This document shows, piece after piece, positions 32,283 through 38,101 of a stretch of 64,000 nucleotides of DNA; positions within the stretch are counted from its first letter, which is position 1, and each line of letters starts with the position of its first letter. Source of the DNA: Bacteroidales bacterium (GTDB lineage: Bacteria; Bacteroidota; Bacteroidia; Bacteroidales; UBA932); NCBI GenBank assembly GCA_017630215.1, contig JAGBVR010000001.1, positions 124,001-188,000 on the forward strand, given 5' to 3'. The notes under the pieces were generated by a model. It ran no database searches. It saw only the letters and a program-made list of their open reading frames with translations, and was not told the origin of the DNA. The position numbers were made by a program, and so were the translations under genes.

Positions 32283-32843
32283 TTAAAAGGCAAGACCTAG
32301 TCTATACTGAATGTGCGGTGCTATGAATAGTTCATCAGCTATACCGATCCTCGGACCGAAAGTAATTTCATGGAACCAAAGCTTGCCGAACGTTCTTCGT
32401 ATTCCATATGCCGGTGTAAAGCAGACTTCCAGTTCCCCATCACTTGTCAAGGCCCTAAGCCTCATTGAAATAAAGTCTGAAGAGTTGTTATAGGTACTTC
32501 TGCCGTATTCTGCACGCTTGGCTATATTCGAATACCATCTTGTTTCAAATGTCAATCCAATGCCCATATTTCCGATAAAACTGGTCTTTTCCGGGGTTGA
32601 AAATAATACAAAGCCATTAGGTACAAGTCCGGCTCGTCCGATGAGCGTCCATCTGTCAGCCACGCGTCCTTCGAATGAATATTCAAGACCTAAAAGTGTT
32701 GTAGAAACAGAATGGTTAGAGCGCAATTTATACGTATAGGTAATCTGGTCCTGAGGTCTTTCCTCTATCGGTTTCCTCCTTGCTTCAGCATTGATTGCGC
32801 AGATAGCTGCGGTAAAAAATAACAGTATTCGTCTCATAATCAA
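32283..32843 (-). CDS. Predicted outer-membrane protein upstream of the CsgG operon
   Basis: 186 residues; signal peptide ending NAEA, with Met1 or Met3 as start. The body alternates strands of a small barrel (WTLIGRAGLVPNG, FIGNMGIGLTFETRWY, HIQYRLGLAF) and ends in Phe. No family was recognised. The CsgG-like gene begins 21 bp downstream on the same strand, so it is probably the first gene of that operon. Confidence 0.65.
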   Translation of the reverse strand: MIMRRILLFFTAAICAINAEARRKPIEERPQDQITYTYKLRSNHSVSTTLLGLEYSFEGRVADRWTLIGRAGLVPNGFVLFSTPEKTSFIGNMGIGLTFETRWYSNIAKRAEYGRSTYNNSSDFISMRLRALTSDGELEVCFTPAYGIRRTFGKLWFHEITFGPRIGIADELFIAPHIQYRLGLAF

Positions 32844-32852
32844 TATTTTTCA

Positions 32853-32860
32853 CAAATATA
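32853..32860 (-). promoter_or_regulatory. -7 box of the CsgG operon
   Basis: TATATTTG on the minus strand matches TAnnTTTG and lies 9 bp before the annotated ATG (15 bp before Met3). The -33 region is not clear. Confidence 0.4.
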
Positions 32861-33047
32861 GTGGAGGTAGGGTTCAAATCCAAGAATAAATACAATTTTT
32901 AAATCGTAAAACTCACCCCTGAATGACCCTCAATCCAAGTTTAAGTTCCTGACGAGGACATATCTGATGCTCTTTACACCACTATTCTCAAAGAAGGGCT
33001 GATAACTTTGACTGACTGCTACAATCCGACAGACAGAATGTCAGTAG

Positions 33048-33497
33048 TCACTTGCTCGGACACATTTTTTCATATAATGCCGGTCTTCGCTCACGGGCTT
33101 CTTCCATCATTTGTTTTCTCTGCTCTGGAGTAGGGTGAAATACCTGATATCCCCATCCGTAGGCATTTTCAAATGCGCGTCTTCCCGCTGGTGTCATTAG
33201 ACCACGGTCTTCAAGATCCATGCACCTGTCCATATTCAGTTTGGTCCAATGGCTGTTCTTTCTTCTTGGAGACAGTCTCTGTGCGAGTCTGCCATCAGGA
33301 AGTTTCTTGAGGGTGCTGTCAATCCATCCGAAGCATAGGGCTTCTTCCACGACATCAATATATGGCAGTATGCCCGGCGGGGGAGTCTTGCTCCTGCTCA
33401 TGACGACCCAGCACTCCTTCTCCTTGGAGTGATTCTCCTGCAGCCATGCCCTAAGCTGCGACCGTTCTGAATATTCTAACAGTGTGGTGATTTCCAT
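33048..33497 (-). CDS. YdeI/OmpD-associated family protein
   Basis: 149 residues with the family's CWVVMSRSKTPPPGILPYID, EALCFGWIDSTLKKL and RLSPRRKNSHWTKLN segments. Members are cytoplasmic and were linked genetically to peptide or bacteriocin resistance, but a biochemical activity is not known. It stands 30 bp after the end of the accessory nucleotidyltransferase operon on the same strand and may be transcribed with it. Confidence 0.9.
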   Translation of the reverse strand: MEITTLLEYSERSQLRAWLQENHSKEKECWVVMSRSKTPPPGILPYIDVVEEALCFGWIDSTLKKLPDGRLAQRLSPRRKNSHWTKLNMDRCMDLEDRGLMTPAGRRAFENAYGWGYQVFHPTPEQRKQMMEEARERRPALYEKMCPSK

Positions 33498-33526
33498 GTT
33501 TTCTCCCTACTTTTTTCCAAGATTGA

Positions 33527-33748
33527 CTATTGTTTCAAGTAACCACCATTGTTTTTGCAGCAAACTATCAAATCGTCAACAGCATCGTCAATTGACTGAA
33601 GGTGTTCAATCTCATAGAACTCAATCAAGAAGTCCAGACCCTTATATTGATCCAGATATTTATGAGCTGCTTTGGCAGATAGATCGAATCTCTTTGCAAA
33701 TGCTCTAATGCAGGCGTTGATATATGGGATTTTATATTTGTCTTCCAT
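33527..33748 (-). CDS. DUF3791 protein
   Basis: 73 residues. The helical pattern YINACIRAFAKRFDLSAKAA followed by YLDQYKGLDFLIEFYEIEH matches DUF3791, a small family often found next to DUF3990 or other toxin-like genes in gut bacteria. Here it starts 3 bp after the metallophosphoesterase stop, as the fourth gene of the nucleotidyltransferase operon. DUF3990 is absent. An antitoxin-like or accessory role is inferred from its usual company. Confidence 0.8.
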   Translation of the reverse strand: MEDKYKIPYINACIRAFAKRFDLSAKAAHKYLDQYKGLDFLIEFYEIEHLQSIDDAVDDLIVCCKNNGGYLKQ

Positions 33749-33751
33749 GTC

Positions 33752-34510
33752 TTATCGAACCTCCGTGATTTCCATAATGTCGAGCATAGAAAAGAGTACT
33801 CCCTCTATCTCTGATGTCCAGCTCCTGTGGAAATGGCCATAGTACCAATGTGAGACCGGATGTCCGTCTGACTTCAGATGATTGAAGATCTGGTCTATTG
33901 TCTTGCGTTCCTTGTTGATGTCTGCAAAGAGGTTGTCATCCCATTCTGCCCACTCTGATATGCCATCCTTGGCGATTAACTCGCAGAAGGAAGGTGCAGT
34001 ATGAGTGATAACTGTGTCTATCTGGAAATTCTTGCCAATCTCGTTGAGTAATGACTCATTGTACACAGGAATCTCATCAGGCCAATATGATGCAACTTGT
34101 GAGATGCGATTCCTGTTGTCGTACTTCTGTCGATTGTATCTGTCAATACTTATAGCTCCACCAATGCATAGGATGTTGTGCTCGCATGCCTGGATTACGC
34201 TATAGTCAGGAATGGTGCGGAATCGTTCATGTGCTATCCTTTCCTCATTGAAATACGCAGGATCATCATGATTGCCACGAACCATCACGACCCAGTTGTT
34301 TGCTTTGTTTAGTCGTGAAGAGTTGCGATTGAAGATGATGTCATAGTAGCCAGGCTTTTCAAATCCAAATCCACAGTCACCGGCAATGATAAGCAAGGTG
34401 TCTGTCATCTGATATTGGACACACATCTTGAATATCACTTCGTTGAAGTGACCGTGAATATCTCCGCAGACAACAATGTTCTTGGCGTCTGGAAATGAAT
34501 ATGTATGCAT
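33752..34510 (-). CDS. Metallophosphoesterase of the nucleotidyltransferase operon
   Basis: 252 residues with the complete calcineurin-like metal-binding set: GDIHGH near residue 17, GDCGFGF, GNHDD, TH in VITHTAPSF and GHFHRS near the end. Members cleave phosphomono- or diesters such as nucleotides, RNA ends or proteins' phosphate groups. It lies 2 bp after the nucleotidyltransferase and 3 bp before DUF3791. A role in reversing or processing the partner's nucleotide transfer is a hypothesis from context. Confidence 0.92.
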   Translation of the reverse strand: MHTYSFPDAKNIVVCGDIHGHFNEVIFKMCVQYQMTDTLLIIAGDCGFGFEKPGYYDIIFNRNSSRLNKANNWVVMVRGNHDDPAYFNEERIAHERFRTIPDYSVIQACEHNILCIGGAISIDRYNRQKYDNRNRISQVASYWPDEIPVYNESLLNEIGKNFQIDTVITHTAPSFCELIAKDGISEWAEWDDNLFADINKERKTIDQIFNHLKSDGHPVSHWYYGHFHRSWTSEIEGVLFSMLDIMEITEVR

Positions 34511-34512
34511 GG

Positions 34513-35193
34513 TTATGACAGTTTCTTAATCATTTCAATTATGTAATCTACTCGGTTCTCTTCACCGTATGGGAGTTTGCATTCAATCTCTTCGCGAATG
34601 TTGGTTCGTTTAAGCATTTTTGCAAACTCCTCTTTGAAGAATTCCTTTAGATCGTCATCTGCTTTCTGGAGTTCCTCAGCAATGTTTTTGTTGTAGTTGA
34701 ATATATAGACAAGGTCTTCGAAATCGTGTGACCATCGCCAATCAGTGCCACCTCGTCCATTCACTGCTTCAATCTTCGTCGCTATGTAATAAGGAAGGGA
34801 GAATATCCAAATCCTTATGCCGTTGGATAGGTGCATTTCCTGCTTGTGGGAAATGGCATCGTGGTACCATCTGTTTGTAAATCCGATGACTTTGGCGTCA
34901 TCAGGCATGATGTCAACGATTTCATTCTCATAAACCCATCTGCATATTGGAGCTCCAGGAGTTGTGTCGTTCTGGAATCCGCAGCTTCTCAATCGTTCTT
35001 CAAGGCTGGTTAATTCACGGTATGACTTCAAGTGTGTAACGCAATCAACGTCCATTGTCTGCCTGACATCAGACTTTGCTGAGTCTATTACATAGAATTC
35101 AGCTACTGAGCCACCCACATATACGACTTCTTCGTTGATTGAACCTAAGCCTTTGGCGACCTTTTCGATTCTTGATATATTATTGCTGTGCAT
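34513..35193 (-). CDS. Nucleotidyltransferase, AbiEii/MenT-like toxin family
   Basis: 226 residues with the polymerase-beta NTase signature: GGSV near residue 29, the catalytic pair in TMDVDC and the third Asp in EIVDIMPDD. A Lys in IATKIEA and HDFEDLVYI complete the AbiEii/AbiGii-like pattern. Relatives transfer nucleotides to tRNA or other targets and act as toxins or abortive-infection effectors. Its start overlaps the winged-helix gene by 14 nt, as in common HTH-NTase pairs. Target and toxicity are inferred. Confidence 0.88.
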   Translation of the reverse strand: MHSNNISRIEKVAKGLGSINEEVVYVGGSVAEFYVIDSAKSDVRQTMDVDCVTHLKSYRELTSLEERLRSCGFQNDTTPGAPICRWVYENEIVDIMPDDAKVIGFTNRWYHDAISHKQEMHLSNGIRIWIFSLPYYIATKIEAVNGRGGTDWRWSHDFEDLVYIFNYNKNIAEELQKADDDLKEFFKEEFAKMLKRTNIREEIECKLPYGEENRVDYIIEMIKKLS

Positions 35194-35713
35194 AGTGGTC
35201 TAATCTGATTTTAAGTTCTTCTATAGCGATTTCAAGTTCTCTGACTCGTCCCATTCTGAGTGTATCCGCAATGACTAGCAGCTCATATAATGCGTTGTCT
35301 TTTGAACATGCTTCAGGGACAGTGCGGTAGAGGGGCTCAATAGCTTGACCTCTGTGATTGCCATCCTTTGATGGCCACACATACGAGTCTTGTCCCTGTG
35401 AGATTTTGCTTTTGATAGGTTCTGCAGAGAATGCGGTGGGCATTCCTCTCACTATGGCACCAGGAAGCGGGGGATAAACATATTTAAGACCATGTATCAT
35501 AAAGTCCTGGAACGATAGGATGTTCACCCTCTTCTTGGTGTTGTCAATCAGTTTTGCAATCTTGCATCTTTCTAGACTGCATGATATTTCTGCTGGACTG
35601 ATTCCCAATTCGTTTGCTAATTGGTTATTCATCCATTCTTTATTCTCTAAAGCGACAATCTTTAGCAGAATAACTACATCTTGAGGTTTAAGAGCTATAA
35701 TTCCCATAGTCAA
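35180..35713 (-). CDS. Winged-helix regulator, probable antitoxin partner
   Basis: 177 residues. Residues ~10-70 form a MarR-like winged helix (QLANELGISPAEISCSLERC). The conserved central part has FMIHGLKYVYPP, VRGMPTA and YVWPSKDGNHRGQAIEPLY, and the C-terminal helix is LYELLVIADTLRMGR. This protein type is widely paired with an adjacent NTase gene, which overlaps it here by 14 nt. Two palindromes containing ATTTGC lie upstream, consistent with autoregulation. Antitoxin function is inferred. Confidence 0.8.
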   Translation of the reverse strand: MTMGIIALKPQDVVILLKIVALENKEWMNNQLANELGISPAEISCSLERCKIAKLIDNTKKRVNILSFQDFMIHGLKYVYPPLPGAIVRGMPTAFSAEPIKSKISQGQDSYVWPSKDGNHRGQAIEPLYRTVPEACSKDNALYELLVIADTLRMGRVRELEIAIEELKIRLDHYAQQ

Positions 35714-35720
35714 TTATTCG

Positions 35721-35737
35721 ATTTGCGAATTGCAAAT
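35721..35737 (-). promoter_or_regulatory. Operator-like palindrome 1 of the winged-helix/NTase operon
   Basis: ATTTGC-GAATT-GCAAAT, perfect 6-bp arms with a 5-bp spacer, 8 bp upstream of the annotated start. The arms match the core of the larger palindrome at 35806-35821, suggesting two sites for one DNA-binding protein, most likely the encoded winged-helix protein. Confidence 0.6.
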
Positions 35738-35805
35738 TTATATCATATTATTTGAAAAATCAATAAGATACGATAAATAAATTTGCTTAGTAATTTGTTG
35801 AATTC

Positions 35806-35821
35806 GCGATTTGCAAATCGC
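35806..35821 (-). promoter_or_regulatory. Operator-like palindrome 2 of the winged-helix/NTase operon
   Basis: GCGATTTGCAAATCGC is a perfect 16-bp palindrome flanked on both sides by AATT. It includes the ATTTGC/GCAAAT core seen at 35721-35737, and a further half-site ATTTGC occurs at 35781. The three occurrences lie within 110 bp upstream of the operon. Confidence 0.65.
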
Positions 35822-35845
35822 AAATTCTCATAATTTAATAGGCGC

Positions 35846-35940
35846 TTTTCACATAATCCGTGCTATTTTGAGGGGTAAATTTCACATAATCCGGCCATTT
35901 TTGAGCTCAAATTTCACACTTTTCGGATTTTGGGCTCGGG
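35846..35940. repeat. Three degenerate ~33-nt direct repeats
   Basis: TTTCACA recurs at 35847, 35880 and 35912. The first two units continue as TAATCCG, about ten variable bases, then TTTTGAG; the third is more diverged. The 33- and 32-bp spacing resembles multiple transposase-binding repeats at the ends of some insertion sequences such as IS21-family elements. No intact transposase gene is adjacent, so this may be an element end or remnant. That reading is tentative. Confidence 0.45.
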
Positions 35941-36137
35941 ATGCTAGTCTCTTGATGAGTAAACTTTCTTTGAAATGTTTGTTCGTTTGATAAAGGATAT
36001 TGTCGTACTAGATGCTTTTCCTGCTCGAGAATACATGATTTACGGGCTATGAGTTTCTGATTTTCCATGAAGCCAAGAGTAAAAATATGCCCGGTTTTAC
36101 ACAATAAGCAAGATGGGCAATTGTAATACAAAGACAA
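35907..36137 (-). other. Doubtful 76-codon ORF beside the direct repeats
   Basis: The frame encodes a Cys- and Gln-rich sequence (MENQKLIARKSCILEQEKHL from its second Met) with no recognisable domain. It overlaps the third direct repeat at its 3' end. The surroundings (35941-36264) are AT-rich and otherwise empty apart from a weak CATTTCG/CGAAATG inverted repeat. It could be the tail of a lost mobile gene or a chance frame. Confidence 0.25.
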
Positions 36138-36264
36138 TACGATTTCAAAGTAAGATGATCAGAAAATACTGCCCAAATTTTTAATTGTAGCATTTCGTTA
36201 ATGGATAAATAAGCGAAATGTAAAAATGATGGTTGGTTTTTGTATCATAAACTAAATAATGGAT

Positions 36265-36302
36265 AAAAAATCCCAGCCAGGGACTTATGTCTTCTGACTG
36301 GG
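36265..36302 (-). terminator. Rho-independent terminator of the blaI-blaR1 operon
   Basis: On the minus strand CCCAGTCAG pairs with CTGGCTGGG (one mismatch), with an inner GAC/GTC pair, followed by ATTTTTT. It begins 26 bp after the BlaR1 stop codon. Confidence 0.9.
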
Positions 36303-36328
36303 GTACTTATGTTTAACTACTGAAAAGG

Positions 36329-38101
36329 TTATCGTCTGATATCTTTCGGCTCTGTCTCTGATACATTCATCGGAACCGCCTGATATATCACCTGCATTTC
36401 TGCGTCAGAAAGTTCTGCGAGCGTCTTGCCGAATACTTCTGCCGAGAGTTCCTCACGAAGTTCCTTGTAGGCTGTGGTAATGCATTCCATTGCTTTAGTA
36501 TAGCCTTCATATGAAGTGCCTCTGTCAATTTGTAATGAAACAATAGCATTGCTTACTTTGAACTGCTTGGTCGAGCCGTCAGGCATTGTGATGTCCCTCA
36601 TTTCGTATTCCGGTAGAGTTGCTTTATTCTCAGGATTCAAAATGTGATTCTTTAGGATTTCTACATCAAATTCCGAAGCATCGCAGATATAATGCCCTTG
36701 AGCCCTGAAAGATCTGTCAGTCGCCAGCAGTACCTTATCTTTTGCATTGATCTTAAAACTGATAAGATTTCTTCTGCTTACATCAGTTGCCCATTCTTCT
36801 GGAGTCATGAAACGAGGCTCATCTGATTTTTGTTCTGTGTTTTCTACAGCAGGCGGCATACGCTTCTCAATAGCACTATCGTCGGTTTCATATCTGACCT
36901 TCAATGCACGGGCATTTCTGAGCTGCTCCTTGATGTCAGTTATGATGCCCATCGGTACATTTTCATCCGCTGAAATGGAAACAGTCGTATTGTACATTTC
37001 CTCACCTGAGAAATATTCGGACACAGTCTTGCTGATGGTTTCAATGTCAGTCAGATTGTCATTGCAGTAAATAGAGTACGTTCCTTTCTCTTCATTGCTT
37101 TTAGCAACATGGATACGGAAGGTAAGCGGTTCCTGTTCGTCTAAAGTTAAGTTCGTAGTTTCTACGGCTTCTTCTTGACTTTTTACTCCGCATCCGAATG
37201 CGAGGAATACGAGAGCAATTACGGGGAGTGTGGCAGCCAGCCTGAGCCAGGCCCCTTTGCCACGATGAGATTGAGTCATCATAATGAATCTTTGTTTTGT
37301 CAATGAATGATTCAACCCACAGGTAATATCCGGATTATAACCAAAGAGTTGTTTGAATATGGTTGTTCTATAAGTTTTCAGGCTCCATCCTTCGTCCAGC
37401 ACATCCTTGTCAGCTTCCCACTCCTGCACTTCCTCCAGATCCTTCTCTGCCATCCAGAAGAACGGATTGAACCAGAAGATAGAACGGAGTACCGACATGA
37501 GAAGTCGCTCGTATGAATGTCTATGTCGTACGTGACTTGCTTCATGAGTGAGGATCTGTCTGCGCTCCTGAGGCTCATAGTTGAAGCCCATGAATATGGT
37601 CCTGATGAAGGAGAACGGAGTCTTTATGTCCTCGTGTTCTGCGAGGGTATAGTCCTCTTCGTATGTGAGCTTTGACTTACTGCGAAGCCTGTATATCCTT
37701 GCTGTGTTGTATGCGAGCAGAGCAAGTGATATGGCTCCGACTAATGTGTACAGGATGGTCAGGATCAATTTCAGGTCAATTGATTTGTCTGTTATTTGGG
37801 CTGATGATTCAGGCTTTATAGCCTCGCTGTTATGATTGACTGCGACTGCTTCTTCCAGGTCAGCTGGAACTGCACCGAAATCGTCAAAGCTGAACACAGT
37901 CCATTCGCTGAGTCTAACCACGTTCTCAGATGGATACAACGGTACATCCATAATCGGAATTGTCACAGAAAGCACCATCGTCACTATCAGATAGGCACGG
38001 CAGATCCTGAAGCCGACTTTCTTTGCCAACATCCAACGATATAGCACCAGAAAGAGTCCGCTGCAGATCAATGATTCAACTATGAAACTGATTACTGACA
38101 T
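36329..38101 (-). CDS. BlaR1/MecR1-like M56 membrane metallopeptidase
   Basis: 590 residues. Three N-terminal spans occur at about 5-23, 33-50 and 110-132. The M56 zinc motif HEASH is at 186-190, with EVQEWEADKD supplying the downstream Glu/Asp; a fourth span is near 285-305. The ~290-residue C-terminal domain is extracytoplasmic and lacks a penicillin-binding SxxK/SxN fold. The signal sensed may therefore not be a beta-lactam. In the family, the peptidase cleaves or triggers loss of the BlaI repressor encoded 21 bp upstream. Confidence 0.9.
   Translation of the reverse strand: MSVISFIVESLICSGLFLVLYRWMLAKKVGFRICRAYLIVTMVLSVTIPIMDVPLYPSENVVRLSEWTVFSFDDFGAVPADLEEAVAVNHNSEAIKPESSAQITDKSIDLKLILTILYTLVGAISLALLAYNTARIYRLRSKSKLTYEEDYTLAEHEDIKTPFSFIRTIFMGFNYEPQERRQILTHEASHVRHRHSYERLLMSVLRSIFWFNPFFWMAEKDLEEVQEWEADKDVLDEGWSLKTYRTTIFKQLFGYNPDITCGLNHSLTKQRFIMMTQSHRGKGAWLRLAATLPVIALVFLAFGCGVKSQEEAVETTNLTLDEQEPLTFRIHVAKSNEEKGTYSIYCNDNLTDIETISKTVSEYFSGEEMYNTTVSISADENVPMGIITDIKEQLRNARALKVRYETDDSAIEKRMPPAVENTEQKSDEPRFMTPEEWATDVSRRNLISFKINAKDKVLLATDRSFRAQGHYICDASEFDVEILKNHILNPENKATLPEYEMRDITMPDGSTKQFKVSNAIVSLQIDRGTSYEGYTKAMECITTAYKELREELSAEVFGKTLAELSDAEMQVIYQAVPMNVSETEPKDIRR

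What the first reader, a model, noticed from the sequence alone, without database searches (positions are those of the whole stretch)
33527..35821. Four-gene winged-helix / nucleotidyltransferase / metallophosphoesterase / DUF3791 operon
Gaps are -14, 2 and 3 nt, so the four genes are one unit. The HTH-NTase pair is a widespread toxin-antitoxin-like couple. A calcineurin-type phosphoesterase and a DUF3791 protein directly appended are not part of the usual pair as I know it. One enzyme could add nucleotides and the other could remove or process them, with DUF3791 as a further control. The surrounding DNA (AT-rich, empty flanks, possible element end) fits an accessory defence or stress island.
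Basis: partly seen in the sequence, partly recalled or inferred. Interest (0 to 1): 0.72.

Follow-up and report, generated by a model that had tools for sequence, protein, structure and literature searches.

The report
Toxin pair with swappable phosphoesterase gene
A gut bacterium carries a small growth-arrest-type toxin pair followed by an enzyme gene that, in related gut bacteria, sits behind several unrelated kinds of nucleotide-transferring toxin systems, so it looks like a shared accessory of such systems whose job is still untested.

Summary
The four genes exist as described (gaps -14, 2, 3 nt). Genes 1-2 are PADLOC candidate PDC-M21 (E 5e-47, 3e-55): a winged-helix protein and an AbiEii-like nucleotidyltransferase (NTase) with AbiEii motifs I-IV, behind two palindromes. 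In 9 of 9 strong M21 loci read outside the window's order the pair stands without this phosphoesterase. Gene 3, a metallophosphoesterase (MPE), is the real find. Of 208 relatives found, 80 were kept: 32 end an operon with one of four NTase modules (AbiEi-AbiEii 14, a second wHTH-NTase 12, M21 3, CD-NTase-SLATT 3), 5 follow RhuM-Fic, and 28 show no recognised module. In 40 of 40 locus pairs with different core modules, DNA similarity begins -59..+33 nt from the MPE match start: modules are exchanged at that border. DUF3791 is a local addition (window and one close relative) without its usual DUF3990 partner. Best reading: an autoregulated AbiE-like toxin pair with an exchangeable phosphodiesterase that reverses or limits nucleotidyl transfer; that function is inferred. 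Rivals: a phosphatase that reactivates the toxin, or unlinked cargo. Ten paper searches showed no description of this association.

The parts
35180..35707 (-). winged-helix protein, 175 aa (PDC-M21A): presumed autorepressor and antitoxin
   Evidence: PADLOC PDC-M21A E 5.2e-47; no Pfam match above cut-off
34513..35193 (-). nucleotidyltransferase, 226 aa (PDC-M21B), AbiEii-like: presumed toxin
   Evidence: PADLOC PDC-M21B E 3.2e-55; GG, R44-x-T46-x-D48-x-D50, K140..R147, D157..D160
33752..34510 (-). metallophosphoesterase, 252 aa: the recurrent, exchangeable partner
   Evidence: PF00149 38.3 bits; GDIHG, GDCGFGF, RGNHD, THT and GHFH motifs; family loci
33527..33748 (-). DUF3791 protein, 73 aa, without a DUF3990 partner
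   Evidence: PF12668 E 4.9e-22; next ORF has no Pfam match; 21 of 30 DUF3791 loci have a DUF3990-like protein
35721..35737 (.). proximal palindrome (presumed operator), overlapping TAAATTTG at 35733-35740
35800..35827 (.). distal palindrome, 14-nt arms with one mismatch (presumed operator)
33048..33497 (-). 149-aa ORF 29 nt downstream, possibly co-transcribed; no Pfam or PHROG match
33499..35932 (.). block shared at 96% with L042, whose flanks are otherwise different

Best explanation
Shown: the operon is a PDC-M21 winged-helix/NTase pair followed by a metallophosphoesterase from a Bacteroidales family that is exchanged between several unrelated NTase and Fic modules, plus a stray DUF3791. Inferred, and the mechanism I commit to: the winged-helix protein represses its own promoter at the two palindromes and neutralises the NTase. 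Once released (phage, stress), the NTase stops growth by adding a nucleotide to tRNA or another target, as AbiEii/MenT toxins do. The MPE, made from the same mRNA, is a phosphodiesterase that cleaves the bond made by nucleotidyl transfer (NMP-RNA, NMP-protein or cyclic oligonucleotide) and so sets a threshold or allows recovery; it can serve many modules because they all make the same kind of bond. DUF3791 is probably the stray half of a DUF3791-DUF3990 pair.
For: Pair identity and NTase motifs. MPE placed at the end of AbiEi-AbiEii, wHTH340-NTase254, M21 and CD-NTase-SLATT operons (32 of 80 loci) and behind RhuM-Fic (5 of 80, and the own genome's contig C46). Stop-to-start distance within -20..+20 nt in 40 of 45 computable loci. 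Exchange border at the MPE start in 40 of 40 different-module pairs. Changes of partner are spread over the MPE tree. Metal motifs kept in 93 of 107 MPE rows, all 14 exceptions viral. GNHD plus GHxH motifs, which I recall as typical of phosphodiesterases rather than PPP phosphatases.
Against: No function was tested and no structure could be predicted. 29 of 83 labelled loci have no recognised module, and Bro-RhuM and the ~400-aa partners are not known nucleotidyltransferases. The MPE is optional: 0 of 30 AbiEii loci of the own family have it. Labels cluster on the tree and many loci are near copies, so the counts overstate independence. An eraser beside its toxin could equally be a phosphatase.
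Confidence: 0.4

Rival explanations
1. Cargo: the MPE is an independent mobile gene (phage-derived or selected for itself) that settles behind autoregulated toxin and defence genes because their promoters and mobile islands suit it; there is no biochemical link to the NTase.
For: 29 of 83 loci have no recognised module; relatives occur in 28 IMG/VR loci and 32 phage records, where no such module HMM hit was seen beside them; the operon lies beside excisionase- and integrase-like genes in L042.
Against: Tight, often overlapping junctions; a module gene is directly upstream of 36 of 83 MPE genes but of 0 of 621 other genes in the same loci (a biased control because loci are centred on the MPE); ParE and HipA genes, about 99 and 110 in 119 family genomes, were not seen among the upstream proteins scanned.
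Confidence: 0.27
2. Activator: the MPE is a phosphatase that switches the toxin on. The antitoxin induces phosphorylation of the active-site threonine of the NTase, and the MPE removes that phosphate.
For: R-x-T-x-D-x-D with its threonine is invariant in the aligned M21B (14 rows), NTase254 (9) and AbiEii (10) partners; MenT1 is inactivated on T39 of R37-x-T39-x-D41-x-D43 (PMC11375011, passages); an unidentified reactivating phosphatase was postulated for the related toxin TglT/MenT3 (PMC7205606, passages); the MPE profile shows weak similarity to PP2A over its first ~75 positions (E 3e-5).
Against: Phosphorylation of these NTases is not shown; Fic, SLATT and RhuM partners are not known to be regulated that way; the motif combination GNHD + GHxH is not the PPP type (recalled).
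Confidence: 0.2
3. Second effector: the MPE is itself a toxic nuclease or nucleotide-cleaving effector, and the upstream module controls its expression or supplies its trigger.
For: Calcineurin-superfamily phosphoesterases are predicted effectors in other conflict systems (PMC7159879, passages) and are listed among SAVED-linked effector domains of CBASS (PMC10419184, passages).
Against: Here the MPE is the constant part and the toxins vary; the modules exist without it; it also stands without any recognised module or antidote.
Confidence: 0.1

Closest known systems
PADLOC phage-defence candidate PDC-M21 (M21A + M21B)
   Same: Both models match strongly and in order.
   Different: An MPE and DUF3791 are appended; 9 of 9 strong loci read outside the order lack the MPE.
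AbiE type IV toxin-antitoxin system (AbiEi + AbiEii)
   Same: wHTH-NTase order, NTase motifs I-IV, two palindromes at the promoter (definitions from passages of PMC3985639). True AbiE operons also carry this MPE (14 of 80 loci).
   Different: NTase below the Pfam AbiEii cut-off and wHTH without an AbiEi match.
MenAT nucleotidyltransferase toxin-antitoxin systems
   Same: RxTxDxD active-site pattern including the phospho-acceptor threonine; weak profile match to PDB 8an4, an AbiEii/AbiGii-family toxin (E 9e-4).
   Different: Antitoxin type not compared directly; no phosphoesterase is mentioned in PMC11375011 (0 occurrences of 'phosphoesterase' or 'phosphatase' in its main text).
DUF3791-DUF3990 pair (PADLOC PDC-M13)
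   Same: DUF3791 matches PF12668 and PDC-M13A.
   Different: No DUF3990 follows here, against 21 of 30 loci.
Metallophosphoesterases of phages (phrog_1649; Prevotella phage Lak)
   Same: Same broad family: phrog_1649 E 1.7e-21; 15 Lak records at 28-30% identity over 97% of the query.
   Different: No AbiE/M21/Fic-type module HMM hit beside the 28 IMG/VR copies; Lak-A2 has a Pol-beta NTase about 4 kb away.

Membership tests
PDC-M21 (PADLOC candidate) | adjacent M21A and M21B proteins | tested here: met
   E 5.2e-47 and 3.2e-55, overlapping genes
PDC-M21 (PADLOC candidate) | anti-phage activity | not testable with these tools
   a candidate label only
AbiE type IV TA | NTase motifs I-IV of AbiEii/DUF1814 | tested here: met
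   present in the window NTase; in the 14-row alignment my patterns matched I-II in 13, III in 13 and IV in 13 (one row is truncated, one misses pattern III)
AbiE type IV TA | NTase above the Pfam AbiEii cut-off | tested here: not met
   17.7 bits against 22.5
AbiE type IV TA | AbiEi-family antitoxin | tested here: not met
   wHTH matches PDC-M21A and weakly M64B, no AbiEi model at E <= 1
AbiE type IV TA | autorepression through two promoter inverted repeats | tested here: inconclusive
   two palindromes present and seen in some relatives; binding not testable
AbiE type IV TA | toxicity neutralised by the antitoxin | not testable with these tools
   needs expression
Calcineurin-like phosphoesterase (PF00149) | score above cut-off with the metal motifs | tested here: met
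   38.3 bits against 21.5; motifs
SbcD / YfcE named subfamilies | NCBIfam score above cut-off | tested here: not met
   22.0 against 77.65 and 22.2 against 56.25
DUF3791-DUF3990 pair (PDC-M13) | DUF3791 protein | tested here: met
   PF12668 78.1 bits against 25
DUF3791-DUF3990 pair (PDC-M13) | DUF3990 gene directly downstream | tested here: not met
   the next ORF, 33048-33497, has no Pfam match at E <= 1

The most novel reading that the evidence does not exclude
One mobile phosphodiesterase family is a general eraser of nucleotidyl-transfer damage. Lak-type megaphages use a relative to undo tRNA- or protein-nucleotidylating defences of gut Bacteroidales, and the bacteria have fitted the same enzyme, repeatedly and exactly at its start codon, to AbiE-type, M21, CBASS-type and Fic modules as an exchangeable antidote or off-switch.
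Probability: 0.12. Interest if true: 0.87.

Novelty: new variant of a known kind. Interest (0 to 1): 0.62.

Why it matters
How NTase toxins of the AbiE/MenT kind are turned off or repaired is open: one paper read in passages says there is no evidence that cytidine-extended tRNA is repaired by known pathways (PMC10435456), another postulates an unidentified phosphatase that reactivates the toxin (PMC7205606). A conserved phosphoesterase joined repeatedly and precisely to unrelated NTase and Fic modules is a concrete candidate for either missing enzyme, and nature supplies matched pairs (nearly the same MPE, different toxin) to test it. It could also serve as a marker for unrecognised toxin or defence modules in gut Bacteroidales, and it links them to a gene carried by Lak megaphages.

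Tried and rejected
DUF3791 as a standing partner: rejected; among 111 MPE loci searched only the window and L042 have it. A mobile-element end marked by the TTTCACATAATCCG repeats (35847-35893): not supported; the looser pattern occurs 4 times in the genome, 2 of them here, and the motif with up to 2 mismatches gave 3 window hits against 0.73 expected. The block shared with L042 does end at 35932, just past them, so the point stays open. RNA element: no Rfam match at gathering threshold in 32500-36600. Sigma-70-type and terminator scans: about as many hits as in shuffles. Relation to lariat debranching enzyme: the full profile aligned over nearly its whole length (E 7.6e-4) but the C-terminal part alone found nothing credible, so I do not use it. 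Whole-gene replacement of the MPE between window and L042 (dS 0.35 against 0.07 for the NTase): the excess sits in one tract around 34060-34300, so local recombination is simpler. M21 NTase in viral contigs: 70 pattern hits, none confirmed; none in phage records. Collinsella plasmid MPE relatives (24-27%): one directly before a second MPE, one beside a hypothetical gene, no NTase annotated nearby in the two looked at. Pattern test of motifs III and IV on NTase254: 0 of 9 and 0 of 9; but the same pattern also failed or matched elsewhere on true AbiEii rows, so it is not a fair test there. Palindromes like the window's were not seen upstream of M21A in L064, L171, L173, L177 and L178. Literature: all 10 searches used. 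AbiEii + metallophosphoesterase gave 1 paper (a phage genome, listing only); CD-NTase + metallophosphoesterase 0; metallophosphoesterase + toxin-antitoxin + Bacteroidales 0; calcineurin-like phosphoesterase + toxin-antitoxin + nucleotidyltransferase 4 (two read in passages, two seen in the listing only).

Rows dropped: 8 G-handle loci that duplicate genome contigs records; split MPE genes L050, L079, L134, L145 and 20 of 26 usable viral rows from the tree; 25 of 160 alignment pairs whose labels differ but are not both core modules. 128 of the 208 MPE relatives were never seen (the tool keeps 80).
Full report
What is there. The window lies in a 2.26-Mb, 57.8% complete draft genome of 50 contigs; its nearest named relatives are Bacteroidales. 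On the - strand four open genes follow each other with gaps of -14, 2 and 3 nt. Genes 1 and 2 match the PADLOC candidate pair PDC-M21A/B (E 5.2e-47, 3.2e-55), gene 3 is a calcineurin-like metallophosphoesterase (MPE; PF00149, 38.3 bits), gene 4 is DUF3791. Gene 2 scores below the Pfam AbiEii cut-off but carries AbiEii motifs I-IV (motif definitions from passages of PMC3985639).

Regulation. Two palindromes lie at 35721-35737 and 35800-35827, upstream of the first ATG (35707); the proximal one overlaps a TAnnTTTG box, which I recall as the Bacteroides -7 element and which is common in the window (36 matches to TAWNTTTG, 20.5 expected). L042 has both, L043 the distal one; by eye L041, L060 and L170 have related sequences near the start codon, and L174 has two palindromes of another sequence at similar places; L064, L171, L173, L177 and L178 show nothing alike. 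AbiEi represses its own promoter through two inverted repeats (PMC3985639, passages), so the layout suggests autoregulation; binding is not shown.

The core pair is widespread, the rest is added. In a phylum sample the M21B model matched 19 of 395 genomes; 10 of 20 matches were strong (E <= 2.7e-38), one of them the window. The other 9, all outside the order, were fetched: in 9 of 9 the wHTH-NTase pair is present, and in 0 of 9 was this MPE seen within five ORFs either side. In the own family 4 of 299 genomes matched the NTase: the window; G283, with MPE; G152, without this MPE but with a different PF00149 protein 51 nt upstream of the pair; and one weak hit.

The MPE is a well-conserved, promiscuous partner. 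In the own family 17 of 299 genomes have a match; 11 of 21 matches are nearly full length, the rest are fragments, broken or cut. In 296 genomes of the phylum only the own genome reached E 1e-40 (weaker relatives would not show). A scan of the species-genome collection gave 208 relatives, of which the best 80 were kept. I labelled these 80 with the window, the second MPE of the own genome (contig C46) and one more family locus, 83 in all: no recognised module 29, AbiEi+AbiEii 14 (AbiEii broken or cut in L044, L047, L049), wHTH340+NTase254 12, RhuM-Fic 6, ~400-aa unknown or second phosphoesterase 5, M21 4, CD-NTase+SLATT 3, Bro-RhuM 3, AbiEi only 2, Bro-RhuM on the other strand 2, M21A on the other strand 2, wHTH340 only 1. 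All 29 'no module' loci are among the 80; one of them (L090) sits in the MPE branch of the RhuM-Fic loci and is counted as none. Among the 80, 32 end an operon with an NTase module of four kinds and 5 follow RhuM-Fic. (The summary's 28 counts the 29 without L090.) Module names rest on Pfam and PADLOC scans of representatives and on profiles built here from them. NTase254 is a sub-threshold AbiEii relative (E 0.0024) without a PADLOC match. A faecal scaffold, MT837178, adds one more AbiEii-MPE junction.

Tight coupling and exchange. Of 47 loci with a labelled gene directly upstream, the stop-to-start distance could be computed for 45; 40 of 45 lie within -20..+20 nt, most at -8, -4, -1 or +1 to +4 (the start nearest the stop was chosen, which favours short distances). 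On the MPE tree (quick method, 25 of 84 inner branches weak) starred branches force at least 3 changes, gains or losses, for AbiE, 3 for NTase254, 5 for RhuM-Fic and 2 for M21. Labels are nevertheless clustered (27 changes in all against 54 in shuffles), except RhuM-Fic (63 of 500 shuffles as low). Where two loci share one DNA alignment across the MPE but have different core modules (40 pairs, drawn from about three groups of related loci), similarity starts -59..+33 nt from the MPE profile match (median +5) and ends a median of 116 nt past it; for the 95 same-label pairs ('other' included) the median start is 491 nt upstream, and 58 of 95 reach more than 200 nt upstream. The clearest case is Segatella baroniae B14 (AbiE, L097) against L096/L102 (NTase254): 96% identity from within the first ten codons of the MPE, nothing shared directly upstream. 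As a rough control a module gene is directly upstream of 36 of 83 MPE genes and of 0 of 621 other genes in the same loci; this is biased, since the loci are centred on the MPE.

Against over-reading. The MPE is optional: 0 of 30 AbiEii loci of the own family carry it within about 1.5 kb, several being cut at contig ends. A third of MPE loci show no module, and some partners are not known nucleotidyltransferases. ParE and HipA, with about 99 and 110 matches against about 229 for AbiEii in 119 genomes (sums by hand), did not appear among the upstream proteins that I scanned for 17 of the 29 unlabelled loci. That fits a preference for NMP-transferring enzymes, but the independent changes are few and the samples differ, so it is not proof.

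Phage side. The family occurs in 28 IMG/VR loci and 32 of 50,697 phage records, 15 of them Prevotella phage Lak genomes at 28-30% identity. In Lak-A2 a Pol-beta NTase lies about 4 kb away; dUTPase- and Nudix-like neighbours are named from the letters only. A phage origin or use is possible, not shown.

DUF3791. In 21 of 30 loci of the own family a DUF3990-like protein accompanies DUF3791 (two members confirmed as PF13151). The window has none. Of 111 MPE loci only the window and L042 carry DUF3791. It is under mild constraint between these two (dN 0.023, dS 0.101).

Mobility. Window and L042 share 33499-35932 at 96.2% and 33062-33516 at 90.5%, and nothing else of that 9.3-kb locus matches the window. 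In L042 an excisionase-like gene (phrog_66 E 1.6e-12) and an integrase arm domain (PF17293 E 5e-9) follow; five genes before it have no PHROG match. So the operon appears to travel with a mobile element there.

Mechanism. Shown: gene order, motifs, palindromes, recurrence, exchange. Inferred: the NTase is a toxin that nucleotidylates tRNA or another target, the wHTH neutralises and represses. For the MPE, the reading that covers AbiEii, NTase254, M21, CD-NTase and Fic alike is a phosphodiesterase that cleaves the bond they make (0.4). A phosphatase that reverses toxin phosphorylation is the best alternative for the AbiEii-type partners, because RxTxDxD with its threonine is invariant in all three aligned sets and a reactivating phosphatase has been postulated (PMC7205606); 0.2. 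Cargo without a link 0.27; second effector 0.1.

Papers. Abstract, passages and one section: PMC11375011. Passages: PMC10435456, PMC10419184, PMC9503650, PMC3710099 (RhuM proposed as a toxin domain, often fused to DOC), PMC7159879, PMC13356809 (AbiE and PDC-M13 abundant in rumen genomes), PMC3985639, PMC7205606. Others were seen in search listings only.

Noticed in passing
L096:4245-5971, L107, L108, L117 and others (12 loci): A wHTH protein (about 320 aa) overlapping a 254-aa NTase (GG..RATKDLD) in Prevotella-type genomes, sub-threshold to Pfam AbiEii and without a PADLOC match for the NTase: possibly an unlisted AbiE-like pair.
   Followed up: partly
L061, L076, L079 (Bacteroides xylanisolvens XB1A): CD-NTase (SMODS) + SLATT_4 operon with an MPE 10-15 nt behind it; the MPE is in two frames in L079.
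   Followed up: partly
own genome contig C46 5891-6640 (L033): A second MPE of the family 1 nt behind a RhuM-Fic gene in the same genome.
   Followed up: partly
L054, L057 and L032:6319-7494: A 391-415 aa protein without any Pfam or PADLOC match directly before the MPE, sometimes with a second phosphoesterase before it.
   Followed up: no
L041:3305-5312: M21 pair with a different PF00149 phosphoesterase 51 nt upstream: a second, separate phosphoesterase-M21 neighbourhood.
   Followed up: no
window 34060-34300 against L042: A tract of raised divergence inside the MPE gene, while wHTH and NTase are nearly identical.
   Followed up: partly
window 35847-35930: Three imperfect tandem copies of TTTCACA..AT.CGG just inside the end of the block shared with L042.
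   Followed up: partly
L060:2196-3123 and L081:5231-5773: M21A on the opposite strand, divergent from an MPE (M21B partial in L060, not found in L081): another arrangement of the same parts.
   Followed up: no
L239 (Collinsella aerofaciens plasmid, NZ_OY725718.1): Two annotated metallophosphoesterase genes in tandem, the first 27% identical to the window's.
   Followed up: no
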